The position numbers and the translations under genes were made by a program. The notes under the pieces are model-generated. The model had not been told where the DNA came from and did no database searches. It saw only the letters and a list, made by a program, of their open reading frames with translations. From Pontibacter roseus DSM 17521 (GTDB lineage: Bacteria > Bacteroidota > Bacteroidia > Cytophagales > Hymenobacteraceae): a DNA stretch of 64,000 nt. Location of the stretch: the NCBI RefSeq assembly GCF_000373265.1, contig NZ_KB890761.1, forward strand, positions 186,001 through 250,000, written 5' to 3'. Shown here piece by piece: positions 2,157 through 64,000 of this stretch. Position 1 is the stretch's first letter; every line of letters starts with the position of its first letter.

Positions 2157-3284
2157 TTGTCCGGCATATACCTCCATATTCCCTTCTGTAAGCAGGCCTG
2201 CCACTACTGCGATTTCCACTTCAGCACCTCCATGGGGCACAAGGAGGCCACCATACAGGCCATTGCCCGAGAATTGGCGCTACGCCAGGACTACCTGCAG
2301 GGCCAGCCGGTGCACACCATCTACTTTGGTGGCGGCACGCCCTCGCTGCTCACGCAGAGCGAATTGCAACTACTCCTGCAAACCATTAAAGGGCTGTTTA
2401 TAGTTTCGGAGGATGCCGAAATAACCCTAGAGGCCAATCCGGATGACTTGTCGCCGGAGAAGCTGCTGGAGTTGAAAGCGGCTGGCATCAACCGCCTGAG
2501 CATCGGGTTGCAGTCGTTCCATGAGCCACACCTGCGCCTGATGAACCGCGCCCACTCCGCCACCGAGAGCCTGCAATGCGTGAAAGACGCGCAGGCGGCC
2601 GGTTTCGACAACATCACCGTGGATTTGATTTATGGTATACCTGCGCCGGACCACAGCATCTGGCTGCAGGACCTGCAGACGCTCTTCTCCCTGAACGTGC
2701 AGCATGTTTCCTGTTATGGCCTCACCATTGAACCCGACACCGCCTTCGGCCGCTGGAGCAAGAAAGGCTCGTTCAAACCGTCGGAAGACGAGTTCACGGC
2801 AGAGCAGTTCGAGATACTGCTGGAGCAGATGAAGCAGCATGGCTTTGTGCAGTACGAGGTGTCCAACTTCAGCCAGCCAGGTTATGAGTCCAGGCACAAC
2901 AGCAACTACTGGCGCGGCGTGCATTACCTAGGTGTGGGGCCGAGCGCGCATTCCTTCAACGGCCACAGCCGCCAGTACAACGTGTCGCATAACCGCAAGT
3001 ATACTGAGGCCATTGGCCAGGACGTGGTGCCTTTTGAACTGGAGGAACTCACCCTTGCCGACCAGGCCAACGACTACCTGCTTACCACGCTCCGCACCAT
3101 CTGGGGCTGCGACCTGGGCATCCTACGCGACAGGTATAGCTACGACGTGCAGGCAACGCATAGCGCCTATCTGCAGGAGCTCCAGCAAAAGGGGTTGGCT
3201 ACCCTTCAGGACGATGTGCTATACTTGACCGACAAAGGCAAGCTGCTTGCCGACCAGATTACGCTGGATTTATTTGTGGAGTAA
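2157..3284 (+). CDS. hemW: HemW, radical SAM haem chaperone family
   Basis: A 375-residue radical SAM protein. C11, C15 and C18 form the CxxxCxxC 4Fe-4S motif. The residue after the motif is Phe, not the fourth Cys of true coproporphyrinogen dehydrogenase HemN, which points to HemW (haem-binding chaperone that loads haem into respiratory enzymes). GGGTPS and the C-terminal HemN domain follow. The start is a TTG: an in-frame TAA lies at 2151-2153, the radical SAM motif starts within ten residues, and no ATG fits between. Many annotations call this family oxygen-independent coproporphyrinogen oxidase. Confidence 0.9.
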   Translation: MSGIYLHIPFCKQACHYCDFHFSTSMGHKEATIQAIARELALRQDYLQGQPVHTIYFGGGTPSLLTQSELQLLLQTIKGLFIVSEDAEITLEANPDDLSPEKLLELKAAGINRLSIGLQSFHEPHLRLMNRAHSATESLQCVKDAQAAGFDNITVDLIYGIPAPDHSIWLQDLQTLFSLNVQHVSCYGLTIEPDTAFGRWSKKGSFKPSEDEFTAEQFEILLEQMKQHGFVQYEVSNFSQPGYESRHNSNYWRGVHYLGVGPSAHSFNGHSRQYNVSHNRKYTEAIGQDVVPFELEELTLADQANDYLLTTLRTIWGCDLGILRDRYSYDVQATHSAYLQELQQKGLATLQDDVLYLTDKGKLLADQITLDLFVE

Positions 3285-3322
3285 GCAGAAACACACCCTG
3301 TACAATGCATTAGATTAATTCG

Positions 3323-3330
3323 TAAATTTG
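3323..3330 (+). promoter_or_regulatory. TAnnTTTG promoter element (TAAATTTG)
   Basis: A perfect -7 element that would start transcription near 3336. It overlaps the upstream TTG alternative start at 3328 and so favours the ATG at 3364 for the next gene. Confidence 0.5.
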
Positions 3331-3363
3331 ACGATAGCTGGTCTCACAGGGGCCTTAACTTTT

Positions 3364-3774
3364 ATGCCGCAACTGGAAACGCTCTTACTTAACGACATCA
3401 GTCGAATTGCCATCGACCGTGACAACGGCTTGGTGACCAATACCTGGCTCAAGCAAGCCGGGCACGAAGAGATGGTACAGACGGGAGAGCGCATAAACCG
3501 GTTTCTAAGGGAGGCGAAGGCCGACAAGCTTTTGCTGAGTGCCCTGAACATCGGGACGCTGCTGCCGCAGACCAAAGACTGGCTTTCCAACACGTATTAC
3601 AAATCCCTCTCTGAACTGGGGCTGAAGAAGCTGGCCCGTGTGCTGCCGGAGAACCTGTTCAACAAGCTCTCATTTGAAGCCGTCGTCACCAGAGCCGAGG
3701 CACTGGGAGCCATCAGCTTCGAGGTGAAAAACTTCTCCAGTGACCAGGCCGCCATGCGTTGGCTGCTGGACTAG
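3364..3774 (+). CDS. SpoIIAA-like (STAS-fold) small protein
   Basis: A 136-residue cytosolic protein of unknown function. Its architecture matches the two proteins at 16.7-17.7 kb: a short N-terminal strand, an amphipathic helix (ERINRFLREAKADKLLL), a middle Trp/hydrophobic segment and a C-terminal FSSDQAAMRWLLD helix. The ending F-x-x-x-x-x-Ax-WL is typical of SpoIIAA/STAS-like proteins of Bacteroidota. Similarity to the other two is structural more than literal. The ATG at 3364 is chosen because a promoter element overlaps the upstream TTG and because the paralogs begin at the same point. It is followed 21 bp later by the cyclase gene, probably in one transcript. Confidence 0.6.
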   Translation: MPQLETLLLNDISRIAIDRDNGLVTNTWLKQAGHEEMVQTGERINRFLREAKADKLLLSALNIGTLLPQTKDWLSNTYYKSLSELGLKKLARVLPENLFNKLSFEAVVTRAEALGAISFEVKNFSSDQAAMRWLLD

Positions 3775-3795
3775 CCCGCCCAAACCCACACAGGT

Positions 3796-4569
3796 ATGAC
3801 AAGCGCCACCATCACCTACCGCGATCAAGCCTATAGCTTCAACCCGCTGGAGCCGCTGGACATCTCCATGCCGCTACACGCCGGGCAGCCGCAGCCGGAG
3901 TGCTTCTGGGCGGAGCCAGTGGCCTTTGATGTGATACGGGTAGGGGATTTCGTGGGAAGCGTGGCCGAGGGGGGCAGCACCAATTACAAGCGCGTGCACC
4001 TGACACCACACGGCAACGGCACCCACACCGAGTGCTACGGCCACATCTCCGCGGATGAGAACGCCACTATCCACAATTGCCTGAAGCGCTTTCTGTTCGT
4101 GGCCCAACTCATAACCGTGCAGCCACAGCAGCAAGAGAACGGGGATGACGTGGTAATGTTAGAAGACGTGAAGACAAAGCTGCAAGGAATACGCCCAGAG
4201 GCCGTCATTCTACGCACACTGCCGAACACGGATGACAAGCTCACCCGCCACTACTCTGGTACCAACCCGCCCTACCTAGAGCATACCATCGGGGAGTACC
4301 TGGCCCAGCAAGGTATAGCGCACCTGCTGCTCGACTTGCCTTCGGTAGACCGCGAGTTGGACGAAGGTAAGCTGCTGTGCCACCACGCGTTCTGGCAATA
4401 TCCGCACAGCACCCGTTGCGGCACCACCATCACGGAGCTCATCTACGCACCTGACCACATCAAAGACGGGCTATACCTGCTCAACCTGCAAATCGCCAGC
4501 CTGCAACTGGATGCCAGCCCCAGCAAGCCGGTGCTGTACGCTTTGTCGCCCGATTTTCCAAAGTTGTAG
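3796..4569 (+). CDS. Cyclase family protein (kynurenine formamidase-like)
   Basis: A 257-residue metal-dependent hydrolase. The HGNGTHTE sequence (about residues 75-82) matches the HxGTHxD/E metal-binding signature of the cyclase/kynurenine formamidase family, and LLLDLPSVDRE near residue 180 matches the second conserved block. Known members hydrolyse N-formylkynurenine or cyclic amides; the substrate here cannot be read from the sequence, and no kynurenine pathway gene is adjacent. It is convergent with metF. Confidence 0.8.
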   Translation: MTSATITYRDQAYSFNPLEPLDISMPLHAGQPQPECFWAEPVAFDVIRVGDFVGSVAEGGSTNYKRVHLTPHGNGTHTECYGHISADENATIHNCLKRFLFVAQLITVQPQQQENGDDVVMLEDVKTKLQGIRPEAVILRTLPNTDDKLTRHYSGTNPPYLEHTIGEYLAQQGIAHLLLDLPSVDRELDEGKLLCHHAFWQYPHSTRCGTTITELIYAPDHIKDGLYLLNLQIASLQLDASPSKPVLYALSPDFPKL

Positions 4570-4623
4570 GTATAGCCTGGGCTGTAGCGGACTCATCCAT
4601 GGGTCAGAAGCACGCCACGAATC

Positions 4624-4639
4624 AGGTATAGCTATACCT
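4624..4639. repeat. 16-bp perfect palindrome AGGTATAGCTATACCT
   Basis: Two head-to-head copies of the window-wide 8-mer meet exactly at the metF stop codon, between the convergent cyclase and metF genes. It is too short and AT-rich for a conventional terminator. Confidence 0.7.
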
Positions 4640-5641: not shown

Positions 5642-9355
<3,714 letters not shown>

Positions 9356-9630: not shown

Positions 9631-9872
9631 CCTAAAAGAGTTTAATTGTTTTCACTCTATAACTCTTTATGTTTAAGTATACGGGAGGCAACATAGCCTT
9701 GTTGCCGTTATCTGAATAAACTTTCAATCAAGAGCTTGTTCCGTCATATAAATGTGCTTCCGGCTAAGGTATAGCCTACTTGTCTACACAATCGGCGGGT
9801 TGGTATAATTCTTTTGCTACTTTGATGAAAGGCTATACTTTAACGTTTTGCAGTGTTCAAAAAATCGAGGCT

Positions 9873-10496
9873 ATGAATTTCAAGACATTCACGCTCAATG
9901 GCATCAGCGTTTTTCTGGGGCTCATCTTCTTTACGGCAGGTATGGCAAAGCTCTTCTACGAGCATAGGTTCCCGGGCCTCATCGGGCCGGTGTGGCTGGA
10001 GGAGAGACTGGCGGAGTTCCAACTGGGCCTCTTCGCCCGCTTCATCGCCTACTCCCAGGTGGTGGTCGGGTTCATCCTGCTGACCCTCCGCTACCGCACG
10101 CTCGGCGCCATTGCGCTGCTCCCCATGCTCCTGAACATCCTGCTGGTCACCATATCGCAGAACTGGCAAGGCACGCCATACGTGCTCGCTTTCTTCCTGC
10201 TGCTGAACCTCGTGCTGCTGGCAGCAGAGGCCCCCAAACTCCTGCACCTAGTAGGGTTCAGGACGGCCTATGCGCCTGCGGTTAACTCACCCATACGGCA
10301 TGGCCTAATCTGGCTGGTGGGGCTGGGCCTGGTGCTGGGCAGCATCCCGCTTTCCTTCCGAAGCCTTACAGCCGCCTATTTCCTGACTGTGGCAGGTATA
10401 GCCACCGGCCTTTATACCTACTGGAAAGGCGGGCGCGCCGGAAAGCAGGTGAAAATTCCCTCGGCTATACCTGAGGCCATGCTCGCCTCAAATTGA
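9873..10496 (+). CDS. DoxX-like multi-pass membrane protein
   Basis: A 207-residue integral membrane protein with about six hydrophobic segments (for example ISVFLGLIFFTAGMAKLFYE, FIAYSQVVVGFILLTL, LLPMLLNILLVTI and VLAFFLLLNLVLLAA). Helix order, the short F-x-AGxxKL motif after helix 1 and the length resemble the DoxX/MauE-like family, often linked to membrane redox functions. No partner gene is adjacent, so the role stays open. The ATG at 9873 (MNFKTF) is preferred to an upstream start that would add 31 residues of unlike composition. Confidence 0.55.
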   Translation: MNFKTFTLNGISVFLGLIFFTAGMAKLFYEHRFPGLIGPVWLEERLAEFQLGLFARFIAYSQVVVGFILLTLRYRTLGAIALLPMLLNILLVTISQNWQGTPYVLAFFLLLNLVLLAAEAPKLLHLVGFRTAYAPAVNSPIRHGLIWLVGLGLVLGSIPLSFRSLTAAYFLTVAGIATGLYTYWKGGRAGKQVKIPSAIPEAMLASN

Positions 10497-12839: not shown

Positions 12840-13184
12840 CTACTTGAAATACTTAGTAAGTTTAGGAGACAAAGGGAGCGGGGCATCCGGCCCTGCCCTT
12901 CCTGAATTACCAACTCGTCGGGCGCAGGTATAGCGATGTGTTTCCGCTTGCCGCTCCGACATCAAAACGGCCCTTAGCGCCACTGGGGCAGGTTCTGCCC
13001 CGACACCTGTGAAAGCATTAGGCTTAACTTATAAAGTATAGTATTCCAACGGCTTACGACTATATCTGCGTATCGCCTTATGAATATATTAGCATGTTTC
13101 AACCGGCTGCCTTCGGCAGCGGCTTTTCTATATCTATCTTTAATTAATCACCCGGGCCCTTGACACCCGCTAAATGTATAGGCT
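12840..13184 (+). other. nrdB-nrdA spacer with two hairpins
   Basis: No gene seen. It holds a 7-bp hairpin GGGGCAG-GTT-CTGCCCC (12985-13001) and a stronger one, GCTGCC-TTC-GGCAGC near 13107-13121, followed by GGCTTTT, which could act as a weak terminator or attenuator. TATCTTTA near 13135, one base off TAnnTTTG, is the best candidate for a separate nrdA promoter. Confidence 0.5.
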
Positions 13185-15563
13185 ATGTTAGTAGTTAAAC
13201 GTGACGGCAGACGCGAATCCGTCAAATTCGACAAAATTACCGCACGCATCGAGAAGCTGTGCTATGGTCTGAACATGGACTACGTGTCACCGATTGAGGT
13301 GGCCAAGAAAGTCATTGACGGCATCTACGACGGCGTAACGACCATTGAGTTGGACAACCTCGCGGCTGAGACGGCCGCCTCGCTCACCACCAAGCACCCC
13401 GACTACGCGGTATTGGCGGCACGCGTGGCCATTTCGAGCCTGCACAAGGTGACGAGCAAGTCGTTCTCCAACACCATGAAGCGCCTCTATACCTACGAGG
13501 ACCCGAAGACGGGAGAGAACGCTTCGCTGTTGGCCAAGGATGTGTATGAAATCATCCGAAAGCACGCCAACACGCTGGATTCGACCATCATCTATGACCG
13601 GGACTACAACTACGATTATTTTGGATACAAGACGCTGGAGCGTTCCTACCTGCTTCGCCTAGACGGCAAGATAGTGGAGCGGCCCCAGCATATGTTGATG
13701 CGTGTGGCCGTGGGTATCCACAAGGAGGACATCGAATCTGCCATCGAGACTTATAATCTCATGTCTGAAAAGTGGTTTACGCACGCCACACCAACGTTAT
13801 TCAATGCCGGCACGCCAAAGCCGCAGCTGTCCTCGTGCTTCCTGCTCACCATGCAGGACGACAGCATACCGGGCATCTATGATACGCTGAAGCAATGTGC
13901 CCAGATTTCGCAAAGCGCCGGCGGCATCGGCCTGAGCATCCACAACGTGCGCGCCACGGGCTCCTACATCAAGGGCACCAACGGCACGAGCAACGGCATT
14001 ATACCTATGCTGAAGGTGTTTAACGACACGGCCCGCTATGTGGACCAGGGCGGCGGCAAGCGCAAAGGCGCTTTCGCGATATACCTGGAGCCATGGCATG
14101 CCGACATCTTCGAGTTCCTGGACCTGAAGAAGAACCATGGCAAGGAAGAGAACCGCGCCCGTGACCTGTTCTACGCCCTCTGGACGCCAGACCTGTTCAT
14201 GAAGCGCGTGGAAGAGAACGGCAGCTGGAGCCTGTTCTGCCCGAACGAGGCACCTGGGCTTGGCGACTGCTGGGGACAGGACTTCGAGCGCCTCTATGAA
14301 AAGTATGAGCGCGAGGGCCGTGCCCGCAAGACGGTGAAGGCGCAGGACCTGTGGTTTGCCGTACTGGAGTCGCAGATTGAAACCGGCACGCCGTACATGC
14401 TCTATAAGGACCACGCGAACCGCAAGAGCAATCAGCAGAACCTGGGTACCATCAAGAGCTCCAACCTCTGCACCGAGATTATGGAGTATACCAGCCACGA
14501 CGAGGTAGCGGTATGTAACTTGGCCTCGCTGGCGCTGCCACGCTACGTGAAGGAGGAGAACGGCCATAAGGTGTTCGACCACCAGAAGCTTTTTGACGTG
14601 ACGTACCACGTGACCAAAAACCTGAACAAGGTAATTGATATCAACTACTACCCGGTGCCGGAGGCGAAGAACTCCAACATGCGCCACCGTCCAATCGGGC
14701 TGGGTGTGCAGGGCCTGGCGGATACCTTCATTGCGCTGCGTATGCCATTCGAGAGCGAAGAGGCACGCGGCCTGAACAAGGACATCTTCGAGACAATTTA
14801 CTTTGCGGCCATGACGGCTTCTAAGGACCTGGCCAAGAAGAATGGAGCCTACGAGACCTTCAAAGGCTCTCCGCTGTCAGAAGGCAGGTTCCAGTTTGAT
14901 ATGTGGGGTATAACACCAGACAGCGGCCGCTGGGATTGGGAAGAGCTGCGCCAGGAAGTGATGACACACGGCGTGCGCAACTCGCTGTTGGTAGCGCCAA
15001 TGCCGACGGCTTCTACGGCTCAGATTTTGGGCAACAACGAATCGTTTGAGCCTTATACCTCCAACATCTATGTACGCCGCGTGCTTTCCGGAGAGTTCAT
15101 GGTGGTGAACAAGCACCTGCTGAAGGACCTTATTGGTCTAGGTTTGTGGAACGACAAGATGAAGCAGGACATCATCGCGGCCAACGGCTCGGTGCAGGAG
15201 ATTAAAACTATTCCGCAGAACATCAAAGACCTGTACAAGACGGTATGGGAAATCAGCCAGCGCACGGTGATTGACATGAGCGCCGACCGCGGTGCCTACA
15301 TCTGCCAGAGCCAGTCGCTGAACCTGCACGTGCAGAACGTGAACTTCGGCAAGCTGACTTCCATGCACTTCCATTCGTGGAAGAAAGGCCTGAAGACCGG
15401 CATGTACTACCTGCGCACCAAGGCCGCTGTTGACGCCATCAAGTTCACGGTGGAGAAACAGGCCGCTGAAACCCTGGAGCCAGTTTACAACCAGGACCAG
15501 AATCGCAGCGACATGAGCTGCTCTCTGGATAATCCAGACGCTTGCGAAGCTTGCGGATCGTAA
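13185..15563 (+). CDS. nrdA: Class Ia ribonucleotide reductase large subunit
   Basis: A 792-residue R1 subunit. Residues 1-90 form an ATP-cone ([16 protein letters not shown]) for allosteric activity control. The active-site cysteines are C218 (SSCFLL) and C444 (VCNLASL), the redox pair, and C429 (NLCTEI), the thiyl radical position. The C-terminal CEACGS supplies the shuttle pair C787/C790 that is re-reduced by thioredoxin or glutaredoxin. Substrate is ribonucleoside diphosphate. Works with NrdB encoded just upstream. A clear terminator follows. Confidence 0.97.
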
Positions 15564-17132: not shown

Positions 17133-17239
17133 TGCAGCCGCCACGTATCTACCAAGTATAATCTAAAACATGTCACTACAGGATAAAGCAGCGTTGGCTG
17201 CCATTCCTATACCTGCAAATATAAGCGAAAAGTTAAACT

Positions 17240-21114: not shown

Positions 21115-21155
21115 CAGCCGCCTGCCGTGGCGCAGGCTATACCTAGATTAACCGC

Positions 21156-22840: not shown

Positions 22841-22943
22841 CGTTTCCGCGCTATACATACTTCGCTATACCTGGTCATCGATTCACAAAAGGAGAGTTTT
22901 GCAAAGACTCTTCCCGGCCATACCTTCTGGCTTATCTTGCCAG

Positions 22944-24475: not shown

Positions 24476-24546
24476 CCGTTTATTTTGGAACAAGGGTATA
24501 CGGTATGTCCGGCTTTGGGTATGGCTATACCTGTTCCCATAAAAAA

Positions 24547-47154: not shown

Positions 47155-47172
47155 ATCGCTGTTGCTATACCT

Positions 47173-48492: not shown

Positions 48493-49767
48493 TTAGTAAG
48501 CGAAAAGCGGGTACTGCTTCATCCAACTGTTCACTTCTTTGCGCGCCGCCTCTAGCTTGCTATCGTTGTCATGGTTAGTCAGCACGTCATCCATCAACTC
48601 CACAATGCGGGCCATATCGTTCTCTTTCAGGCCTCGTGTTGTGATAGCAGCCGTACCCACACGCATACCAGACGTCACGAATGGTGACTTGTCATCAAAC
48701 GGCACCATGTTCTTGTTGATGGTGATGTCAGCCTTCACCAGTGTGTTCTCAGCCAGTTTGCCGGTTATACCTTTCGAGCGCAGGTCAATCAGCATCATGT
48801 GGTTGTCTGTACCACCTGAGATGATGTTGTAACCGCGCTCCACGAAGGCGGCAGCCATTGCCTGTGCGTTTTTCTGCACTTGCTGGATGTAGGAGGTATA
48901 GTCATCAGAAAGGGCTTCAAAGTACGCCACCGCCTTGGCAGCGATGACGTGCTCCAGTGGCCCGCCCTGCGTTCCAGGGAACACAGCGCCATCCAACAGA
49001 GACGACATCATGCGGGTTTCACCCTTTGGTGTTTTCAGACCGAATGGGTTCTCAAAGTCTTTCCCCATCATAATCATACCGCCTCTTGGGCCACGCAGCG
49101 TTTTGTGCGTAGTGGTCGTCACAATGTGGCAATGCTCAAATGGGTTGTTCAACAGCCCTTTGGCAATTAGGCCAGATGGGTGGGAAATGTCGGCCAGCAG
49201 CAGTGCGCCCACCTCATCGGCAGCGGCCCGCAATTGCTTGTAATCCCAGTCACGGCTGTAGGCGGAGGCTCCGCAGATAATCAGCTTCGGCTTCTCGCGT
49301 CGAGCGGACTCTACTACTTTATCAAAATCAATTAGCCCAGTTTCCTGCTCCACGCCATAGAACGAAGGCTGGTATAGCTTGCCAGAGAAGTTCACCGGGG
49401 ATCCGTGCGTCAGGTGACCGCCGTGGGAAAGGTCAAACCCCAGGATTTTATCGCCAGGCTGTAGCACGGCCAGCATCACCGCCGCGTTTGCCTGTGCCCC
49501 TGAATGCGGCTGCACGTTGGCCCAAGCGGCGCCGAACAGTTCTTTGGCACGGTCAATGGCCAACTGCTCTGACTGATCTACGATTTCACAGCCACCATAG
49601 TAGCGCTTGCCTGGAAGCCCTTCCGCGTATTTATTGGTCATTTCGCTGCCCATGGCCTGCATCACCTGCTCCGACACGAAGTTCTCGGAGGCAATCAGTT
49701 CGATGCCATGCATCTGGCGCTCTTTTTCCTTGGCAATCAGGTCGAAAATGGCTGTATCTCTTTTCAT
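48493..49767 (-). CDS. glyA: Serine hydroxymethyltransferase
   Basis: A 424-residue PLP enzyme interconverting serine and glycine and charging tetrahydrofolate with a one-carbon unit, the feed for Met[12 protein letters not shown], the [12 protein letters not shown] site, HGGHLTHG and the [14 protein letters not shown] block with the PLP lysine are intact. It leads the operon with tatC and rpiB, and has a promoter 25 nt upstream. Confidence 0.97.
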
Positions 49768-49944: not shown

Positions 49945-49965
49945 CTATACCTTGTGAGGTAGATG

Positions 49966-53023: not shown

Positions 53024-55261
53024 ATGGAACAACCTTTACAACACTCACTCCCCCTTCACCAAGAAAAAAGTAGGGGTAAAACAGTACCATTACGCCCTTC
53101 TGAAAGTCTATTGCTAAAGAGCATGCTTACCTTACTGTTTCTTGTACTATTAAGCGTGCCTGCTGTGGCTTCCCACTTCAAAGGTGGGCAAGTAACTTAC
53201 AAGTACCTGGGCAACGGGCAGTATGAGATGACTACAAAGGGCTATTGGGACAAAGATGCAGTAGGAAGCGTCGTACTGAGCTACGAAGGCTCGCCTACTA
53301 TCAACACAGGCACCACCACCGTGTCAAAAACACTGCTTCCTGACGGCATGACGGTAGAGCACATCCAGCGGCAGCGCATCACCTGGTCAAAGCCTGGTTT
53401 GTACCAAATCTCCTGGAAAAGCTGCTGCCGGGCCAATGGCTCTAACTTTGGGGCGGAGGAAAGTGGCTTGTTTGCAGCAGTGAACTATAATCCCGATGCC
53501 GTAAGCTCCTCGCCTCAGTTCTATGACCTGCCCATCTTCAACTACAACGTGGAAAGCGCCATCAGCTTCAACATGAACATGGAAGACGCGGAGGGGCATG
53601 GGCAGGAGTATTCGCTGGAGATTCCTTACGGGCTGACAGGCGACCCATACAAACTGATGAAGGAGACCGGCTTCAGCATCAGCAACGATGGCATCATCAG
53701 CTGGGAAAAGCCGCTGAAGGGCTTGTGGTTGGTAAACGTAAAGCTCCGGGAGAAAATAAACGGTGAGTTCACTGGGGCTTTCGTACTCCGCGACTTCATA
53801 CTGAACATCACCTCCAGCGACAATACACCTCCTGTTTTCACCTCTGTAGAGGAGCAGTATGTGACCCAAGGCCAGACCATCTCCTTTGAGGTGTCTGCTC
53901 AGGATGCCCAGCAACAGAACATAGCATTGAATGCGAATAGCTCGCTCTTAGAGAAAGGAGCCACCTTTGCACAGTCTGTGTTTGGCAATGCAGCTAAGGG
54001 CACCTTCACTTGGGCAACCAAAGCCGAAGACCTGGGCAGGTATGCTGTGCAGTTTGTAGCCACTGACTCTGACATCGTGCCGCTTTCCGCTCAGATGACG
54101 GTGTATATCAACGTGGTTGAAAAGAAGGAGGAGGTATGCGCTACAAGCGTTACCTACACGATAAATTCTGCCCCATGCGCAGGAGGGAGCAACGGCAAAG
54201 TAACCCTCACAGGCACAAACGGTACAGCCCCCTATACCTATTCCTTAGACGGTGGTACCAGCTTCAGGGCCTCTGCTACATTCGACAAACTGGCTGCCGG
54301 CACTTACTCAGCTGTGGTGAAGGACGCCAAGGGATGCACCAGCGCACCGGTGCAAGTTAAACTGACTACTCAGGCTTCATCTAATGTTATATTTGCCTTG
54401 CCCACGTCTTCCATATGCGCAAGCGCTTCTCCTCTTGCTTTGTCAGGGGGCTCTCCGGCTGGAGGCAATTATACAGGCACCGGGGTTACTAATGGCTCAT
54501 TCCATCCTGCAGTGGCGGGAGTAGGCACACACACCATCACCTATACCTACACTAACGAGTCAGGATGCAGCAGCACCGCATCGCAACGTATAACGGTTGT
54601 AGCGCCTACCGCTGTGAATGCTGGCCCTGACCAGACGGTGACGGTAGGGTATAATTCTGCCGCAGCCTGCGCCACGCTTACTGCAAGCGCAGAAGGCACC
54701 TCCTATACCTACCGCTGGAGCAACGGAGCCACTACCCAGACCATCAAGGTTTGCCCCACCACTACTACCACCTATACCGTAACCTTGACCGATGCATTTG
54801 GCTGTACCAGTTCAGATGAAGTAACGGTGTTTGTAAAGGATGTGCGTTGTGGTAACAAGAAGGAAAAGGTAGTGGTGTGTCATAAAGGAAAGCCAATCTG
54901 CATCGCTCCCCAAGCTGTGCAGGCTCACTTAGACCACGGATGTGTAGTAGGTGACTGCAGCGACAGCCCAACAACCGATGCGAAAGAGGAGTCAACCGAG
55001 GGGGCTATCGTATCTGTGTTCCCTAACCCGATGTCCAGCCAGTCACAGCTACACGTCATCACCAAAGAGAAGGGCAACATCACTATTGATATACTGGACA
55101 TGAATGGCAAAGTGGTGTTGAAGCTGCATAAAGGGGAGGTCCAAGCCGGGCAGGAACTCAACTATGAGCTAAAGCGCAGCATCGGCCCGAACAACATCTA
55201 CATCGGCAGAATCATCACGGAAAAAGGAGTCCAGACCTTTAAGCTGATGATAGCAGAATAA
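53024..55261 (+). CDS. T9SS-sorted surface protein with SprB repeat and PKD-like modules
   Basis: A 745-residue protein. A long N-terminal region leads to a signal helix (LLFLVLLSVPAVAS). The first domain starts SHFKGGQVTYKYLGNGQY and is followed by cadherin/PKD-like sandwiches; a SprB repeat (SNGKVTLTGTNGTAPYTYS then AGTYSAVVKDAKGC) and a further repeat with DQTVTVGYNSA. A short domain with VVVCHKGKPICIAPQAVQAH precedes the T9SS tail (VFPNPMSSQSQLHVI to FKLMIAE). SprB-type repeats suggest an adhesin. ATG 53024 is chosen over 52910. Confidence 0.83.
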   Translation: MEQPLQHSLPLHQEKSRGKTVPLRPSESLLLKSMLTLLFLVLLSVPAVASHFKGGQVTYKYLGNGQYEMTTKGYWDKDAVGSVVLSYEGSPTINTGTTTVSKTLLPDGMTVEHIQRQRITWSKPGLYQISWKSCCRANGSNFGAEESGLFAAVNYNPDAVSSSPQFYDLPIFNYNVESAISFNMNMEDAEGHGQEYSLEIPYGLTGDPYKLMKETGFSISNDGIISWEKPLKGLWLVNVKLREKINGEFTGAFVLRDFILNITSSDNTPPVFTSVEEQYVTQGQTISFEVSAQDAQQQNIALNANSSLLEKGATFAQSVFGNAAKGTFTWATKAEDLGRYAVQFVATDSDIVPLSAQMTVYINVVEKKEEVCATSVTYTINSAPCAGGSNGKVTLTGTNGTAPYTYSLDGGTSFRASATFDKLAAGTYSAVVKDAKGCTSAPVQVKLTTQASSNVIFALPTSSICASASPLALSGGSPAGGNYTGTGVTNGSFHPAVAGVGTHTITYTYTNESGCSSTASQRITVVAPTAVNAGPDQTVTVGYNSAAACATLTASAEGTSYTYRWSNGATTQTIKVCPTTTTTYTVTLTDAFGCTSSDEVTVFVKDVRCGNKKEKVVVCHKGKPICIAPQAVQAHLDHGCVVGDCSDSPTTDAKEESTEGAIVSVFPNPMSSQSQLHVITKEKGNITIDILDMNGKVVLKLHKGEVQAGQELNYELKRSIGPNNIYIGRIITEKGVQTFKLMIAE

Positions 55262-55324: not shown

Positions 55325-55340
55325 GCTATACCTTGAGATT

Positions 55341-57593
55341 TTAGTTCTTCATGAGTTTGAAGGTGTGCTTAGTGCCGTCACTATCCACCACGTGCAGGAA
55401 GTAAATGCCTTTCTGTGTCACGTGCGCCGTGTTGACAGTAACCGTATTGCCCGACGTCTCGATAAGTTGGTCTGCAATCAACTGCCCATGCACATTCATC
55501 ACCGTGGCCTTCACTTTACGCGGCTCCGTACCGTTCAACTTCACAGTCACCACTTCCTCAAACGGGTTCGGGTAGGCCGCCACCACTCCGTTGCCGCCGT
55601 CCAGGGACACGGCCTGCACCGAGGAGAGGGTGGTCGTGCCGTCCAGGTCCACCTGGGCCAGGCGGTAGTAGCGCGTGCCCGACACGGCCCTGGTGTCGAG
55701 GAAGGAGTAGCGCTGCGCCATGGAGGTGGTGCCCACCTCGCTCCTGACGAAGCCCAGGTTCTGGAAAGCGCGCGCGTCGGTGGACACCTGCACCTCGAAG
55801 CCCCTGTTGTCCTGCTCGGAGGCCGTCGCCCACGTCAGCTGCACCCCCTGCGCGTGCCGCTGCGCCTTGAAGGAGATTAGCTCTACGGGGAGGGGAACAA
55901 TACTTGTATTAGTAATGCGGTAAATCCTATTTGGTGCAATCACATTAGAATAGCAGGAGTAGTACTGCTCCCGAATCGTAAGGTCTAATCTGAGTGCATC
56001 AATATTCCCTGGCATCGACTGAATGGTATAGGCAGGAGTATTGGCCCCTTGTACCCAATCTGTAGAACCCGTAATCTGGTAGTGCCACTGATAAGCCTCG
56101 ATTTCCGCTGCAGGTATGTTAGATGTAAAGGTAAAAGTTGCAGACTTACCTGCTTCCATTCCGGATGGTTCTATGATGCTGCCGGCAGCTTGGACAGAAG
56201 GTGTTACAGTGACTGGCACTGTAGCTCTGGTTACACTCTCGCATCCCAATGCATTGTTTACTTTGCTCACATAGAAATAGGTTGTGCCTTCAGGTAAGGT
56301 GCTGGTGGTGTAGCTGGCTCCTCTGTGTATAGCTGTCCCTCCGGTCAAGCTGGTATACCAGAGATAATCCTCGCCTGGTATCGCGCCTGTAGCTGAGAGC
56401 GTAACCGCACCTGCACCACAACGGCCTGCTGGCGCTACACCAGGTGTACCTACGGTCTCTCCTTGATGCATGACGTGCACGGGAGTCGGCAAGCTTCTAC
56501 ATCCTCCTGCCGCAGCCGATTTTACTATCTCTACAGTATAGCCCCCGCTCTGGTTTGCTCTCTTTCTTTCCAACCTTGATGTAGTACCAACAGCTACTGC
56601 TCCTGATACTACAGCTCCACTTGCGTCGTACCAAACATAAGTATCACCTGGCGCGGCACCACTCGCTACCAACGTTACATTCCCTGATGGACAGTCCTCT
56701 GTAGTGGCTACGACTGGAGCATGAACATTACCAACAAGCACCGTTACAGGAGTTCTGTCACTCTCACAGTTACCATTCACCCTGGACACGTAGTAAGTAG
56801 TTGAAATCGAAATTTGGCCTGTTTCTAAAGTAGACTTGTTCTGTCCATTAATCAGTGTGCCATCGGCAGTGTACCAGCGATAACTCGCGCCTGCTGTATT
56901 TCCTGCAACCGTTAGGGTAAAGGTAGCAGCAGAGCAACTACTGGCTGGGACCACCTGCGGTGCAGGTGGCTCGCAAGATTCTATAATGGATAAATTATCC
57001 AGATACAGATGCGAATTATTTTCATTTGCTTGGCTAAACAACCTCAGAGCTATGTATTGATTGTTCTCAGTATTCGGTGCAGTGAAGGTAATGGCATAGC
57101 CGGAAAGCTCTGAGTTTTTGTTTACTGCAACACTACCCTTTGCAGTTCCGCTAGCGCTTCCAGCCTCAACAATACTACTACCTTGAAGTACCTCTATATT
57201 CCCCGATGCTGCTGCATTTTGGTTATTTGCACGTGCCTGGAACGACACGGTATAGGTATAGCCTGCTCTTAAAGTCAACGGATGAGAACTGATAACGACA
57301 TAACCGCTATAGCCTGGTTCATTGCCATTTACTGTCAATGCCTGTAATTGTCCTCCTGATACTCCAATGCCGCCTCGACTTATTCCCTGTATACTCAAAC
57401 CTGCACTACTATCAAAAGCATTTGGTCCATACAACGGTACCACTTGGCTATACGCTGCTGTACCCAGTTGAAGGAATAAAACCAGTAACAGTAGAGAAAA
57501 GAGCCTCGTTCTGCCGCTTAGCACTACTCCCACTGCTTTAAGAGCAGGGCGTGCACAAGAGATGGTAGACTCTAAATTGTAGAAGTGTTTCAT
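55341..57593 (-). CDS. T9SS-sorted surface protein with Ig-like repeats, paralog A
   Basis: A 750-residue protein. MKHFYNLEST opens an extended signal region, the helix (LFSLLLLVLFLQLGTAAYSQ) ending near 50. A CBM-like sandwich follows (residues about 55-205), then four Ig/PKD-like repeats of about 80 residues, each with V-x-L-x-V/A-x-G-x-x-x-G-x-x-Y-x-W-Y. The C-terminal 170 residues are a fibronectin-like module plus T9SS sorting domain nearly identical to the next gene. A GATATTTG element lies only 2 nt before the ATG. Confidence 0.83.
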   Translation of the reverse strand: MKHFYNLESTISCARPALKAVGVVLSGRTRLFSLLLLVLFLQLGTAAYSQVVPLYGPNAFDSSAGLSIQGISRGGIGVSGGQLQALTVNGNEPGYSGYVVISSHPLTLRAGYTYTVSFQARANNQNAAASGNIEVLQGSSIVEAGSASGTAKGSVAVNKNSELSGYAITFTAPNTENNQYIALRLFSQANENNSHLYLDNLSIIESCEPPAPQVVPASSCSAATFTLTVAGNTAGASYRWYTADGTLINGQNKSTLETGQISISTTYYVSRVNGNCESDRTPVTVLVGNVHAPVVATTEDCPSGNVTLVASGAAPGDTYVWYDASGAVVSGAVAVGTTSRLERKRANQSGGYTVEIVKSAAAGGCRSLPTPVHVMHQGETVGTPGVAPAGRCGAGAVTLSATGAIPGEDYLWYTSLTGGTAIHRGASYTTSTLPEGTTYFYVSKVNNALGCESVTRATVPVTVTPSVQAAGSIIEPSGMEAGKSATFTFTSNIPAAEIEAYQWHYQITGSTDWVQGANTPAYTIQSMPGNIDALRLDLTIREQYYSCYSNVIAPNRIYRITNTSIVPLPVELISFKAQRHAQGVQLTWATASEQDNRGFEVQVSTDARAFQNLGFVRSEVGTTSMAQRYSFLDTRAVSGTRYYRLAQVDLDGTTTLSSVQAVSLDGGNGVVAAYPNPFEEVVTVKLNGTEPRKVKATVMNVHGQLIADQLIETSGNTVTVNTAHVTQKGIYFLHVVDSDGTKHTFKLMKN

Positions 57594-58244: not shown

Positions 58245-58314
58245 AGGTATAGCTTTAAAAGGAGAAAGGCCCGCAGCATCCGCTGCGGGCCTTTCTCCTT
58301 TTAAAGCTATACCT
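58245..58314. terminator. 33-bp-arm perfect inverted repeat terminator
   Basis: Two 33-nt perfect arms with a 4-nt loop (ATCC); each outer end is AGGTATAG. It ends the minus-strand T9SS gene at 58322. Confidence 0.85.
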
Positions 58315-58321
58315 TAAGTTC

Positions 58322-60142
58322 TTAGTTCTTCATGAGTTTGAAGGTGTGCTTGGTGCCGTCGCTCTCAATTACGTGCAGGATGTAGATGCCCTTGTGGGTC
58401 ACGTGTCCGGTGTCGATGGTGAGGGTGGTGCCGGTCACCTCCTGCTGGCGGTTGAGGATGACCTGCCCATGAGCGTTGGAGAGGATAGTGTGTACCTTGC
58501 GGGTATCGCCTCCGTTCAGTTTAACGGTTATCACATTCTCAAAGGGATTCGGGTATGCAGTTACTGCTCCGTTGCCGCCGTCCAGGGACACGGCCTGCAC
58601 CGAGGAGAGGGTGGTCGTGCCGTCCAGGTCCACCTGGGCCAGGCGGTAGTAGCGCGTGCCCGACACGGCCCTGGTGTCCAGGAAGGTATAGCGCTGCGCC
58701 ATCGACGTGGTGCCCACCTCGCTCCTGACGAAGCCCAGCGTGTGGAAGGCGCGCGCGTCCGTGGACACCTGCACCTCGAAGCCGCTGTTGTCCTGCTCCG
58801 AGGCCGTCGCCCACGTCAGCTGCACCCCCTGCGCGTGCCGCTGTGCCTTGAACGACACCAACTCTACCGGGAGGGGAATTGGAGCCGGAGTAGGGGCTAT
58901 TGTGTATAGACTTGGAATAGGTGCTCCTGTTGCACTAAAGGTTGTATTCAAGGGTTCGCTTATATTTGATACCATTGAGAAAGTGCCCGCTGTTGCTGTT
59001 TCTCTATACAAGCCATAATTCGGCTCTGTGGCAATACGTTCGTGTGCCAAAAAATTAAATTTTATGTCCGCACTAGTGGCAGCTTGTCCGGTGCTGCCTG
59101 CGCTGACCTGGAAGTAGCGGCTAGCCGACAGTTTGGGGATTGTAGTGCCTTGCTCCTGTACAGAAAGCTTGGTACCGGTTGTTCTTGTAATAACAATGTT
59201 ACGGGCAGAGTTTGCTGAATGTGTTACAGCAACGCCTATACCTCCAAAATCATTTGGAGTTGTACCTGCTGCAACAGAACGTTCGGCTCTTACTCTACCT
59301 GTGATATATTCATTTGCAGTTTCCAATGAAGTCAGTCTTGCACTCTCTCCTAACGTGAGTGTGTACATTGTTGAGGGAGTGCTTGTAGTTGCATCAGAAA
59401 TTGTCGACAGCTTTCCGCCTTCTAGAAGGCTAAGCTCCCCTTCAACTGTCACATTCCGTGGCGTCTTTACCAATCCTCCTACAACTTTGAGGTTAAAGTA
59501 GTTGCCTTCTACAGCCTGTGTTTTATTATCTTGCACTGTTTGAGGTGCTATTATATTGGTAGTACCGTGGTACTCTACAGTACTTGATGTGTTGCAGATA
59601 AAGTCAAACTTTCCAGTACCTATTTCTACCTCACCTTGCACAACTAAGGTTCCGCTAATACTTATAGCAGCTTTAGCGTTGGTGCCATTATTTTCAACTA
59701 GAATATCTAAGTCTTGTACAGTCAATTTGCTTCCCGTGGCTAAAGTAAGTCCTGGTGTACCTCCACCAGTTTTGGCATCTAACTGTAGGTTAAGGCAGGA
59801 GTGCTCACCATCTACAACAACAGCAGCTGACTGCTCAATTCTGGCTATATCATTGGCTCCAGGAAAATCTATGCCCGCTATTGGGTTAGCTTTGGCAGGA
59901 AGTCCCCAAACTTCAGGATTGCTCCAACTGTTGTTTGCTACACCACCATCTTTACCACCGCCTTTTATAGCTTTCCAAGCGATAAATGTTGTCTGCCCAA
60001 ATCCCTCCCCGCTCACCAGCAGGAAAAAGACTAGCAGCATCAAGGTGAAAATTTTCTTCGCGCCACTCAACACCGTTGCTAAGGCAGTGATGCCAGACCA
60101 GGCAGGTGCTGTGGCTAAAGTTGAACTGTAAACGTGTTTCAT
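58322..60142 (-). CDS. T9SS-sorted surface protein, paralog B
   Basis: A 606-residue protein. MKHVYSSTLA opens an extended signal region like that of paralog A (helix FTLMLLVFFLLVSGEGFGQ). The middle 350 residues are beta-rich, with a helix/solenoid-like rhythm (LNLQLDAKTGGGTPGLTLATG and similar), a Flg-like passenger or G8-type fold being possible. The final 170 residues match paralog A, with 112 bp identical (55586-55697 and 58567-58678). ATG 60142 is chosen by alignment with paralog A. Confidence 0.82.
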   Translation of the reverse strand: MKHVYSSTLATAPAWSGITALATVLSGAKKIFTLMLLVFFLLVSGEGFGQTTFIAWKAIKGGGKDGGVANNSWSNPEVWGLPAKANPIAGIDFPGANDIARIEQSAAVVVDGEHSCLNLQLDAKTGGGTPGLTLATGSKLTVQDLDILVENNGTNAKAAISISGTLVVQGEVEIGTGKFDFICNTSSTVEYHGTTNIIAPQTVQDNKTQAVEGNYFNLKVVGGLVKTPRNVTVEGELSLLEGGKLSTISDATTSTPSTMYTLTLGESARLTSLETANEYITGRVRAERSVAAGTTPNDFGGIGVAVTHSANSARNIVITRTTGTKLSVQEQGTTIPKLSASRYFQVSAGSTGQAATSADIKFNFLAHERIATEPNYGLYRETATAGTFSMVSNISEPLNTTFSATGAPIPSLYTIAPTPAPIPLPVELVSFKAQRHAQGVQLTWATASEQDNSGFEVQVSTDARAFHTLGFVRSEVGTTSMAQRYTFLDTRAVSGTRYYRLAQVDLDGTTTLSSVQAVSLDGGNGAVTAYPNPFENVITVKLNGGDTRKVHTILSNAHGQVILNRQQEVTGTTLTIDTGHVTHKGIYILHVIESDGTKHTFKLMKN

Positions 60143-60526: not shown

Positions 60527-61222
60527 TTAGTTCTTCCTCCGCACGAAGTAGGGGCGGTCTAGATTGCACTGAACGGACAGCTCTTTTGAATCTAAATCCA
60601 GGGCGGCGAGGTTGCCGTAGGAGGCGTTTCGGTAGTAGACGCAACCGGCGTCAAGGTTGATTTTGGAGTTGTTATGAGAGGCGCTCTTCTTGATGCTGTG
60701 CAGTGGGGTGGGGGTATGGCCATGCACTAACTGCTTGCCCGACAGCTTCTCCCAGTCCACTTCATAATTGCGGATGTTGAGCATGGCGTCTTTGTCTTTG
60801 AAGATGTCTTCCTGGTGAAAGTCGAAGCCGGCGTGCACCAGGTAATAATCGGGGAGTTCGAGGTAGTAGGGAAGGGAGTCCAGGAAATTAGCGTATAGCG
60901 GGGGGAGCTTTTTGAAGTCGTGTATATCGAAGCTCTGCAGCACCAGCCTTTTCTCTTGCTCTGATAGGTTCAAGGCGGCTTCTCCTTTGGAGGCGGACTG
61001 GAGCAGCATCTGGTCGTGGTTGCCGCGCAGGCAGTGCACCTGGTAGTGCTGCTTCTGCAGATGCAGTACAAAGTCTATCACCCCTTTGCTATCCGGGCCC
61101 TTGTTCACGAAATCACCCAGCAGGTATAGCTCGTCCTGTTTTTTCAGTTGAAGTTGCTCCAGCACGAGCGTCCTGAAGGTACGGGCGCAGCCGTGGATGT
61201 CTGTGATGGCATATCGGGCCAT
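60527..61222 (-). CDS. Metallophosphoesterase, PP1-like serine/threonine phosphatase
   Basis: A 231-residue calcineurin-like enzyme. DIHG (about residues 8-11), GDFVNKGPDS and RGNHD form the dimetal site, with a C-terminal HGHTP and GCVYY / D-A-G block. Such proteins act on phosphoproteins or small phosphates such as ApnA. No kinase partner is adjacent. Confidence 0.9.
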   Translation of the reverse strand: MARYAITDIHGCARTFRTLVLEQLQLKKQDELYLLGDFVNKGPDSKGVIDFVLHLQKQHYQVHCLRGNHDQMLLQSASKGEAALNLSEQEKRLVLQSFDIHDFKKLPPLYANFLDSLPYYLELPDYYLVHAGFDFHQEDIFKDKDAMLNIRNYEVDWEKLSGKQLVHGHTPTPLHSIKKSASHNNSKINLDAGCVYYRNASYGNLAALDLDSKELSVQCNLDRPYFVRRKN

Positions 61223-62906: not shown

Positions 62907-63033
62907 AGTTTTATAGTGGACACTGCGACGGCAGTCCCCTACTATACGCCGGCATTTTTAGCCTAGTTACCCCGGCCCCCAATCTTATTCAGGTAATGGC
63001 CGTTTACTCTTGACATACCTTAGCACCCAACCC

Positions 63034-63288
63034 ATGTGGAAAGAAGAGGACAACAAACTCAAGCGCAGCTTCCGGTTCAATGATTTCAGAGCCGCCATGG
63101 CCTTTATGAACGAGGTGGCCGATGTGGCCGAAGAACTGGACCACCACCCCTGGTGGAGCAACGTGTACAACAAGGTGGAGATAGAGCTCACCACACATGA
63201 CGCCGGTAATACTGTGACGGCCAAAGATGTGGAGCTGGCACGGCGCATCGATGCCATAGCCGACAAGCTGATGGCTACCGGGGCCTGA
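63034..63288 (+). CDS. 4a-hydroxytetrahydrobiopterin dehydratase (PCD/DCoH)
   Basis: An 84-residue pterin-4a-carbinolamine dehydratase fold: MWKEEDNKLKRSFRFNDF, then DHHPWWSNVYNKVEIELTTHD with the catalytic H-H-P-x-W motif, and AKDVELARRIDAIAD. It recycles the pterin cofactor of aromatic amino acid hydroxylases or of molybdopterin paths. No hydroxylase is adjacent. ATG 63034 is preferred over a TTG at 63010. Confidence 0.9.
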   Translation: MWKEEDNKLKRSFRFNDFRAAMAFMNEVADVAEELDHHPWWSNVYNKVEIELTTHDAGNTVTAKDVELARRIDAIADKLMATGA

Positions 63289-63328
63289 GCCGCCTACCTT
63301 CCCGCTATACCTTTCAGAATATCTATAG

Positions 63329-63336
63329 TATCTTTG
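63329..63336 (+). promoter_or_regulatory. TATCTTTG promoter element of rsmI
   Basis: Perfect TAnnTTTG ending 4 nt (CTGC) before the rsmI ATG. Confidence 0.55.
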
Positions 63337-63340
63337 CTGC

Positions 63341-64000
63341 ATGCAGGAACCTGAAAAGACCAACCTATACCTGGTGCCCACGCCCATCGGCAATCTGGAG
63401 GACATCACGCTGCGGGCCATACGCATACTGAAGGAAGTGGACGTTATTCTGGCCGAGGACACCCGCACCAGCGGCAAGCTGCTGCAGCACCTGGGCATCG
63501 AGAAGCGCATGCACAGCCACCACCTGCACAACGAGCACAAGGCCAGCGCCCACCTGGCGGAGCGCATGAAGGCGGGCGAGGTGATGGCACTTATATCAGA
63601 TGCCGGCACCCCCGGAATTTCTGACCCGGGTTTTTTGTTAGTGCGGGAGTGCCTGAAGCATGACCTGAAGGTAGAGTGCCTTCCGGGTGCTACCGCTTTC
63701 GTGCCGGCACTGGTAAAATCGGGCTTTAGTACCGACAGGTTTACCTTCGAGGGATTTCTGCCTCTGAAAAAGGGCCGCCAGACACGCTTGCAGCGTCTGG
63801 CGCAGGAGGAGCGCACCATGATTTTCTATGAGTCGCCGCACCGCCTGCTCAAAACGCTTTCACAGTTCAAAGAGTACTTTGGAGGCGAACGCGAGGCATC
63901 TGTTTCACGTGAAATCTCGAAGATGTTCGAGGAAACCATCAACGGTACTTTAGACGAGCTGATACAAATCTTCACAACAAAAGCAATCAAAGGTGAATTC
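63341..64000 (+). CDS. rsmI: 16S rRNA 2'-O-ribose methyltransferase RsmI, partial (C-terminus cut by window end)
   Basis: The first 220 codons of a tetrapyrrole-methylase-fold enzyme that 2'-O-methylates C1402 of 16S rRNA. LYLVPTPIGNLEDITLRA and AEDTRTSGKLLQHLGI open it, MALISDAGTPGISDPG is the SAM-binding block, GATAFVPALVKSGF and FEGFLPLKKGRQTR follow, and YESPHRLLKTL is present. About 230-240 residues are usual, so only the last part is missing. Frame is open to the last base (GAATTC). Confidence 0.93.
   Translation, partial: MQEPEKTNLYLVPTPIGNLEDITLRAIRILKEVDVILAEDTRTSGKLLQHLGIEKRMHSHHLHNEHKASAHLAERMKAGEVMALISDAGTPGISDPGFLLVRECLKHDLKVECLPGATAFVPALVKSGFSTDRFTFEGFLPLKKGRQTRLQRLAQEERTMIFYESPHRLLKTLSQFKEYFGGEREASVSREISKMFEETINGTLDELIQIFTTKAIKGEF

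What the first reader, a model, noticed from the sequence alone, without database searches (positions are those of the whole stretch)
3132..63372. An 8-mer, CTATACCT/AGGTATAG, is iterated about 30-fold above chance across the window
I located 58 exact copies in 64 kb, about one per 1.1 kb, against roughly 2 expected for any 8-mer on both strands. It occurs in intergenic DNA, at gene ends, in terminator stems (58245, 58307) and in all reading frames of coding DNA. Because it forces rare ATA and CTA codons, selection or copying seems to act on the DNA word and not on the protein. Plus-strand orientation is skewed (41 to 17). This resembles HIP1 of cyanobacteria or a Chi-like/architectural motif, and I know of no description for this lineage. 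The AT-rich orphan at 15.7 kb has none.
Basis: partly seen in the sequence, partly recalled or inferred. Interest (0 to 1): 0.78.

Follow-up and report, generated by a model that had tools for sequence, protein, structure and literature searches.

The report
Genome-wide uptake-like DNA word with dialects
Bacteria of the genus Pontibacter carry thousands of copies of a short DNA 'password' that changes from one species group to the next, much like the self-recognition tags that two unrelated bacterial families use to choose which free DNA to take up.

Summary
The window has 58 exact CTATACCT/AGGTATAG (5.5 expected, order-3 Markov). The 4.58-Mb genome has 4,500, against 108 for the reversed word. 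The window's strand skew is local. In 50 genomes of the genus three related 8-mers behave as dialects: AGGTATAG (A), AAGTATAA (B), AACTATAG (C), with thousands of copies each (up to 8,208) in 39 genomes and weak or background counts in 11. The 154 searched genomes of five other genera of the family lack enrichment. Words are denser between genes, show no replichore skew, are conserved within a dialect, and at some aligned positions are rewritten into the other dialect. This combination resembles DNA uptake sequences (DUS/USS) better than Chi, promoter or HIP1-type motifs. ComEC and DprA match in all 50 genomes; both genes are broken in the same two word-bearing genomes, one of which has the least pure B word. 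No type IV pilin and no full pilus motor was detected, so a reader of the word would be of another kind. Uptake specificity is inferred, not shown, and no receptor was found.

The parts
3132..3139 (-). word AGGTATAG (CTATACCT on -)
4311..4318 (-). word
4471..4478 (+). word CTATACCT
4568..4575 (-). word
4624..4639 (.). two words head to head (4624 -, 4632 +): AGGTATAGCTATACCT palindrome
6184..6191 (+). word
7351..7358 (+). word
7762..7769 (+). word
9767..9774 (-). word
10394..10401 (-). word
10465..10472 (+). word
12926..12933 (-). word
13487..13494 (+). word
17066..17073 (+). word
17207..17214 (+). word
19894..19901 (+). word
21137..21144 (+). word
21396..21403 (+). word
22865..22872 (+). word
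23264..23271 (+). word
24256..24263 (-). word
24525..24532 (+). word
25519..25526 (+). word
27607..27614 (+). word
31580..31587 (+). word
32982..32989 (+). word
33307..33314 (-). word
36790..36797 (+). word
37021..37028 (-). word
37656..37663 (-). word
38375..38382 (+). word
38397..38404 (+). word
38447..38454 (+). word
39150..39157 (+). word
39252..39259 (+). word
39823..39830 (-). word
41575..41582 (+). word
42169..42176 (+). word
43010..43017 (+). word
43976..43983 (+). word
47011..47018 (+). word
47165..47172 (+). word
48894..48901 (-). word
49945..49952 (+). word
50226..50233 (+). word
54232..54239 (+). word
54541..54548 (+). word
54703..54710 (+). word
55326..55333 (+). word
57254..57261 (-). 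word
58245..58314 (.). perfect 33-bp inverted repeat, 4-base loop, whose outer ends are words (58245-58252 - and 58307-58314 +); terminator-like hairpin
   Evidence: predicted -68.3 kcal/mol for the 100-base stretch
58684..58691 (-). word
59236..59243 (+). word
61122..61129 (-). word
63305..63312 (+). word
63365..63372 (+). word

Best explanation
The 8-mer is the core of a DNA-uptake-sequence-like 'self' word: (C)AGGTAT(A/G)G(C) in this species, with sister dialects AAGTAT(A/G)A and AACTATA(G/A) in other Pontibacter groups. Proposed mechanism: a surface or outer-membrane receptor binds the word on free double-stranded DNA; DNA passes the outer membrane by a route without type IV pili; ComEC carries one strand inward; DprA and RecA recombine it. 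Because fragments with the word enter more often, alleles with the word replace alleles without it, and the word accumulates genome-wide by molecular drive. When the receptor drifts in specificity, the genome is slowly rewritten into a new dialect. Shown here: abundance, dialects, phylogenetic pattern, site conservation and some rewriting in place, intergenic preference, no replichore polarity in one complete genome, ComEC and DprA matches throughout the genus, no type IV pilin detected.
For: Density near one per kb, 4,500 copies. A, B or C words reach 2,246-8,208 copies in 36 of 50 genus genomes, and three more (G059, G063, G067) are called A by exclusion. Some genomes carry two dialects (G032: 4,476 B and 2,002 C; G026: 3,911 B and 2,617 C), as a Neisseriaceae genome does for DUS (PMC3630211, section 6). 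Dialects follow the single-gene tree: 8 label changes against 25.2 in shuffles. Within a dialect words are kept more than ordinary 8-mers, e.g. A to A coding 538 of 785 against 26%, non-coding 212 of 509 against 29% (pairs not independent). The other dialect's exact word stands at the same aligned position in 9 of 23 (A to B), 9 of 80 (B to A) and 20 of 92 (C to B) site clusters; for A to B and B to A no other double change of the A/B type appears more than once (the first two directions partly see the same sites). Intergenic 1.84/kb against coding 0.79/kb in this genome, 5.4 against 1.8 in G030; convergent gaps densest, 3.55/kb (18 sites) against 1.68 (16 sites) in divergent. One orientation is preferred inside genes (184:109; 348:218), as reported for DUS/USS (PMC2346458 abstract). 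One-mismatch neighbours are enriched only at positions 1, 2, 7 and 8, as a recognition profile would give. ComEC and DprA families in 50 of 50. Both are broken in the same 2 of 50 genomes while 42 neighbouring reference proteins show no internal stop; of these two, G021 has the lowest B purity of 19 unmixed B genomes, 0.52 against mean 0.67, z -3.5. The longest word-free islands of the G030 sample include one with the tRNA-Ile/tRNA-Ala pair typical of an rRNA operon and one with a UmuDC pair.
Against: No uptake experiment. No receptor found: the DUF5689 lead from Riemerella did not track the word. ComEC and DprA matches are unbroken in all 11 genomes without a strong word, so word loss there is not explained by loss of these genes. 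The other genome with broken genes (G008) has a full word count (5,041). G019 has as low a B density (0.45/kb) as G021 (0.46) with unbroken genes. Rewriting in place is a minority outcome, and none of the A/B cases falls in the window itself. In C to B and B to C comparisons the unchanged word is about as common as the rewritten one (C words AACTATAA 16 and AACTATAG 11 clusters in B species; AAGTATAA 17 in C species). Close inverted pairs are not in excess (24 inverted, 50 direct under 100 bp), words are not biased to gene termini, and spacing is not even (CV 1.15). The favoured strand in genes differs: CTATACCT sense here, AACTATAR sense in G030. Some word-free islands hold ordinary genes.
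Confidence: 0.6

Rival explanations
1. A HIP1-like word: an abundant genomic motif of unknown use, kept by methylation, repair or nucleoid binding, not by DNA uptake.
For: Density and lineage-specific abundance are like HIP1 (recalled knowledge). Words are conserved per site.
Against: HIP1 is a GCGATCGC palindrome (recalled); this word is not palindromic and changes at three positions between groups. Two methyltransferase families do not track it: PF01555 in 31 of 50, PF02086 in 13 of 50, neither in this genome; other families were not searched. Selection at thousands of sites would have to follow each specificity change.
Confidence: 0.18
2. A Chi-like or chromosome-architecture site (RecBCD/AddAB stop, KOPS, matS-like) acting in recombination or segregation.
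For: Over-represented non-palindromic octamer, strand preference inside genes.
Against: No replichore polarity: forward fraction against GC skew rho 0.21, p 0.38, over 20 stretches of the one-contig genome G030; it follows gene strand instead, rho 0.55, p 0.013. Three dialects and losses inside one genus are unusual for Chi (recalled).
Confidence: 0.07
3. A biased mutation or mismatch-repair process (Vsr-like) that keeps creating the word, with no use.
For: Most word differences between A species are substitutions: of 1,294 aligned cells 750 are identical and 163 have a gap or insertion inside the word. Coding and non-coding DNA are both affected.
Against: Enriched neighbours form a tolerance profile at the edges, not one depleted precursor of a single repair step. 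Dialects differ at three positions with different base changes.
Confidence: 0.09
4. Transcription terminator, promoter or RNA element spread by copying.
For: The 58245-58314 hairpin ends in words; convergent gaps are richest.
Against: Sites occur in both orientations and in all frames of genes, with little flank conservation beyond one base each side. Divergent gaps are the poorest intergenic class. Among the 20 largest direct-repeat families shown of 27 in the window, a few short two-copy matches contain the word, but no larger family carries it around.
Confidence: 0.03
5. A defence-related self mark (for example a nuclease that spares word-bearing DNA) that biases which incoming DNA survives.
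For: Would give the same drive and dialects as uptake (inference).
Against: No candidate gene was found; none was searched for here.
Confidence: 0.03

Closest known systems
DNA uptake sequence (DUS) dialects of Neisseriaceae
   Same: Thousands of copies, dialects with a constant core that follow phylogeny, two dialects in one genome, some relatives without any (PMC3630211 abstract and section 6).
   Different: Bacteroidota, not Proteobacteria; different word; core TAT instead of CTG; no type IV pilin or full motor detected, so no ComP-type receptor; close inverted pairs not in excess.
Uptake signal sequence (USS) of Pasteurellaceae
   Same: Short word of about 9 bases in hundreds to thousands of copies; orientation preference inside genes (PMC2346458 abstract; PMC12616744 passages).
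   Different: Unrelated word; no bias to gene termini here; no type IV pilus system detected.
HIP1 of cyanobacteria (recalled, no call)
   Same: Very abundant octamer of lineage-dependent density.
   Different: HIP1 is palindromic and, as recalled, without TATA-core dialects.
Chi sites (recalled, no call)
   Same: Over-represented non-palindromic octamer.
   Different: No replication polarity in the genome tested; dialects within one genus.
Natural transformation of Riemerella anatipestifer
   Same: Bacteroidota machinery whose essential genes, as listed, are ComEC, DprA, ComF, RecA and four proteins unlike known machinery, with no type IV pilus gene among them (PMC8459023 abstract and passages).
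   Different: The term 'uptake sequence' has 0 hits in that text; its surface genes were not identified in Pontibacter here (one is predicted 'fimbrium' by software).

Membership tests
DUS/USS uptake sequence | Short word at hundreds to thousands of copies, far above chance | tested here: met
   4,500 against 108 for the reversed word
DUS/USS uptake sequence | Dialects within the family, constant core, following phylogeny | tested here: met
DUS/USS uptake sequence | Over-represented between genes; one orientation preferred in reading frames | tested here: met
   (gene calls by my own script)
DUS/USS uptake sequence | Inverted pairs forming terminators are common (recalled; typical, not defining) | tested here: not met
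   24 inverted against 50 direct pairs under 100 bp in 464 kb; one clear hairpin in the window
DUS/USS uptake sequence | Natural transformation genes present | tested here: met
   ComEC and DprA families in 50 of 50; stops or frame changes in 2 of 50
DUS/USS uptake sequence | Receptor is a type IV minor pilin (ComP; ComN/PpdA predicted) | tested here: not met
   PF07963 (a 27-position model) in 0 of 50; PF00437 only fragments of 38-66 of 370 positions, at most 25.9 bits, 3 of 50 just over the cut-off. This excludes a ComP-type DUS as far as these models see, not an uptake word read by another receptor
DUS/USS uptake sequence | Word raises DNA uptake and transformation | not testable with these tools
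   needs an experiment
HIP1 | Palindromic GCGATCGC octamer (recalled) | tested here: not met
   word is non-palindromic
Chi | Orientation biased with replication | tested here: not met
   (G030); one search is consistent for this genome
Chi | Changes RecBCD/AddAB activity | not tested
   no call
Methylated recognition site | A matching methyltransferase in all word-bearing genomes | tested here: inconclusive
   PF01555 and PF02086 fail; type I, C5 and other families not searched

The most novel reading that the evidence does not exclude
Bacteroidota have a third, independently evolved self-recognition system for DNA uptake. It is read by a pilus-independent outer-membrane receptor, and its specificity has shifted at least twice within one genus, each time dragging thousands of genomic sites with it and so building genetic barriers between species.
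Probability: 0.48. Interest if true: 0.93.

Novelty: new variant of a known kind. Interest (0 to 1): 0.86.

Why it matters
[quoted passage not shown] A third case, in another phylum and without detected type IV pili, would suggest that such words can arise wherever uptake is selective. It would also offer a genus of 50 searched genomes with three dialects, weak remnants and losses in which to test how such words arise and change, and it gives a handle (the word itself) for finding the unknown DNA receptor of Bacteroidota.

Tried and rejected
Replication polarity (Chi, KOPS): rejected for lack of correlation with GC skew in G030. Copied repeat element: rejected, little flank conservation and no sizeable repeat family. 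Methyltransferase link: two families tested, neither tracks the word; others untested. DUF5689 surface protein as receptor, taken from Riemerella genetics: 22 of 50 genomes matched. Eight short hits follow a gene that I read as SusD-like (my reading, no family call), four lie beside another gene, and ten long ones are a secreted-looking protein found in 5 word-bearing and 5 word-poor genomes, so no link. Other words in genomes without A/B/C: G069 has TATATRR words at 2.9-fold and G036 GGTATRR at 3.2-fold, possibly a fourth dialect and a remnant; left open because AT-repeat words are hard to model. Bias to gene termini: none. Gene calls come from my own simple script, so intergenic densities are approximate. 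Dropped before counts: L001-L004 (under 5 kb) in the 8-mer scan; reverse-strand alignment pieces and pieces under 200 bases; site clusters aligned in fewer than two species of the other group (A to B keeps 23 of 119, B to A 80 of 162, C to B 92 of 114, B to C 85 of 162); mixed genomes G026, G032 and G071 in the B purity test; gaps outside 30-600 bases in the gap-type counts; reference proteins under 120 aa or with best hit under 50% identity.
Full report
Observation. The window has 58 exact CTATACCT/AGGTATAG, 41 and 17 by orientation. The expectation is 5.5 at Markov order 3, and from 1.2 to 35.3 at orders 1 to 5. By the order-3 z-score it is the strongest 8-mer of the window. The whole genome (4.58 Mb, 12 contigs) has 2,196 + 2,304 copies; the word read backwards has 108.

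The word. In 464 kb of this genome (window plus 20 stretches) there are 475 copies. Outside the eight bases the base on each side carries most of the information: C before (46%, G 8%) and C after (55%, T 5%). Compared with 710 kb from genomes and loci without a strong word, one-mismatch neighbours are enriched at the edges: GGGTATAG 6.9-fold, CGGTATAG 3.0, TGGTATAG 2.3, AAGTATAG 2.0, AGGTATGG 9.1, AGGTATAC 5.4, AGGTATAA 3.2. Changes at positions 3 to 6 stand at 0 to 1.3-fold. This looks like a recognition profile with a rigid centre, not like random decay of copies.

Dialects. A LolCE search returned 80 named loci, 39 of them Pontibacter or Botryobacter. An 8-mer scan of them has AGGTATAG among the top three words in 10, AAGTATAA on top in 16, AACTATAG on top in 4, and no such word in 9. 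On a LolCE DNA tree (45 rows, one gene, 15 of 42 inner branches open) the five labels need 8 changes against 25.2 in shuffles. The ten named A species form a clade with support 100; adding the window's own row gives one group with support 71 only. Whole-genome counts in 50 genomes of the genus: the A word exceeds 2,800 in 9 genomes (which covered 37 of the 50); B exceeds 2,200 in 22 and C exceeds 6,000 in 5. G059, G063 and G067 are A by exclusion: they were not in the A count and have high ARSTATAR counts with background B and C. The other 11 have no strong A/B/C word. Of these G006, G036 and G002 keep 3.6-, 2.8- and 2.5-fold ARSTATAR over control, G023, G024, G033 and G064 about 2-fold, G068 1.5, and G025, G027 and G069 0.95 to 1.2; I read the excess as remnants. 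The 154 genomes of the other five genera in the family are near or below control, the highest about 1.4-fold. All three words fit N-XY-TAT-R-R with XY = GG, AG or AC. Named loci and G handles could not be matched with each other.

Sites. Within a dialect the words are kept better than ordinary aligned 8-mers: A to A coding 538 of 785 (control 26%), non-coding 212 of 509 (29%); B to B coding 1,641 of 3,347 (17%), non-coding 531 of 1,742 (14%); C to C coding 112 of 288 (19%), non-coding 90 of 265 (12%). These are species pairs and not independent. In A to A, 163 of 1,294 cells have a gap or insertion inside the word. Between A and B the word is kept less than controls (A to B coding 57 of 859 against 11.5%, non-coding 2 of 166 against 18%; B to A 3 of 2,813 against about 12%). 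Counting each orthologous site once, and only sites aligned in at least two species of the other group, the other dialect's exact word stands at the same position in at least one species for 9 of 23 (A to B), 9 of 80 (B to A; partly the same sites) and 20 of 92 (C to B); for B to C, AACTATAA in 16 and AACTATAG in 5 of 85. Other A/B double changes appear at most once; one-step intermediates in 2 to 5 clusters. The unchanged word is also common in C to B (AACTATAA 16, AACTATAG 11) and B to C (AAGTATAA 17). The A/B cases involve all 10 named A and all 16 B species but none lies in the window row. So some sites persist while the word at them is rewritten; many others are simply lost or gained.

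Placement. Density between genes is 1.84/kb against 0.79/kb in genes here, and 5.4 against 1.8 in G030 (gene calls by my own script). In gaps of 30-600 bases convergent gaps are richest (3.55/kb, 18 sites), then tandem (2.19, 60 sites), then divergent (1.68, 16 sites); in tandem gaps words lie nearer the upstream stop (median 55 bases) than the next start (100). Genes prefer one orientation: CTATACCT sense 184:109 here, AACTATAR sense 348:218 in G030, so the favoured strand of the word differs between the two dialects. In 20 stretches of the one-contig genome G030 orientation follows gene strand (rho 0.55, p 0.013), not GC skew (rho 0.21, p 0.38). Of the six longest word-free islands in the G030 sample, one holds the tRNA-Ile/tRNA-Ala pair typical of an rRNA operon (the rRNA itself was not searched), one a UmuDC pair, one (7.9 kb) an HTH protein and a 1,070-aa protein without Pfam match; another holds an ordinary SurA/PpiD-like gene, and the rest were not identified.

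Competence genes. ComEC (PF03772) and DprA (PF02481) match in 50 of 50 genomes. Type IV pilin signal PF07963 matches in 0 of 50 (a short model that does ring in 8 of 14 control genomes); PF00437 gives only short, weak fragments (31 candidates at most were scored per genome). In G021 (B) and G008 (A) both comEC and dprA carry stops and frame changes, while 42 other reference proteins tested around them have no internal stop, one of them with hits in two frames. G017 (C, 8,208 copies) has a shorter ComEC frame, 561 aa, without a stop in the match; not looked into. That the same two of 50 genomes have both genes broken suggests loss of transformation as a function. G021 has the lowest B purity of 19 unmixed B genomes (0.52; others 0.67 +/- 0.04) and a low density of 0.46/kb, equal to G019 (0.45) whose genes are unbroken. 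G008 keeps a full count. All 11 genomes without a strong word have unbroken matches for both genes, so the word is not simply tied to having them.

Interpretation. Abundance, dialects with a constant core, two dialects in one genome, absence in relatives, intergenic preference, orientation bias in genes and some rewriting in place are together what DUS/USS would show (PMC3630211 abstract and section 6; PMC2346458 abstract; PMC12616744 passages; in-place rewriting and intergenic preference are inference or recall, not taken from these texts). Molecular drive through biased uptake would explain how thousands of sites follow one change of specificity; a cited title says uptake sequences can accumulate by drive alone (seen only in a reference list; the paper was not held). 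The uptake step, the receptor and present competence of Pontibacter are inferred. Transformation in Riemerella needs, besides ComEC, DprA, ComF and RecA, four proteins unlike known machinery, and no pilus gene is among the eight essential genes listed (PMC8459023 abstract and passages), so a pilus-free receptor is plausible. My attempt to follow one of these genes failed.

Literature. Searches of the held library list no paper on an uptake or over-represented word in Pontibacter, Hymenobacteraceae or Bacteroidota; only the listed rows were seen (all hits, top rows in the others), and subscription papers and preprints are not held.

Noticed in passing
L083 (Hymenobacter polaris), L047 (Solirubrum puertoriconensis), L050 (Hymenobacter profundi): Other over-represented words in related genera: CCTAGGGC (29 against 2.2 expected) and CCCTAGGG (16 against 0.6), ACCTAGGG (13 against 0.6), AGGGTAGG (11 against 1.3), each in a single locus. 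Possibly similar systems with unrelated words.
   Followed up: no
G069 (L170-L173, L181-L185): TATATRR words at 2.9-fold (ATATATGGC 42 against 7.7) in a genome without the A/B/C word: possible fourth dialect.
   Followed up: partly
G008 and G021 (L161-L164): comEC and dprA both carry stops and frame changes while tested neighbours are whole.
   Followed up: partly
window 9421-9530 -: SAM riboswitch upstream of methionine synthase metH (5642-9355 -).
   Followed up: no
window 55273-58811: Two diverged copies 2,981 bases apart of a stretch (188 bases at 82%, 300 bases at 91%) overlapping two genes for T9SS-sorted secreted proteins.
   Followed up: no
window 15699-16670 +: 323-aa AT-rich (37% GC) reading frame without Pfam match.
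   Followed up: no
L111-L118: DUF5689 lipoprotein-like gene directly after a gene that I read as SusD-like, in 8 genomes, all word-bearing; more likely a glycan-use locus than competence.
   Followed up: partly
own genome, 464 kb: Eleven pairs of words overlap at a spacing of 6 (AGGTATAGGTATAG), more than at any other short spacing listed.
   Followed up: no
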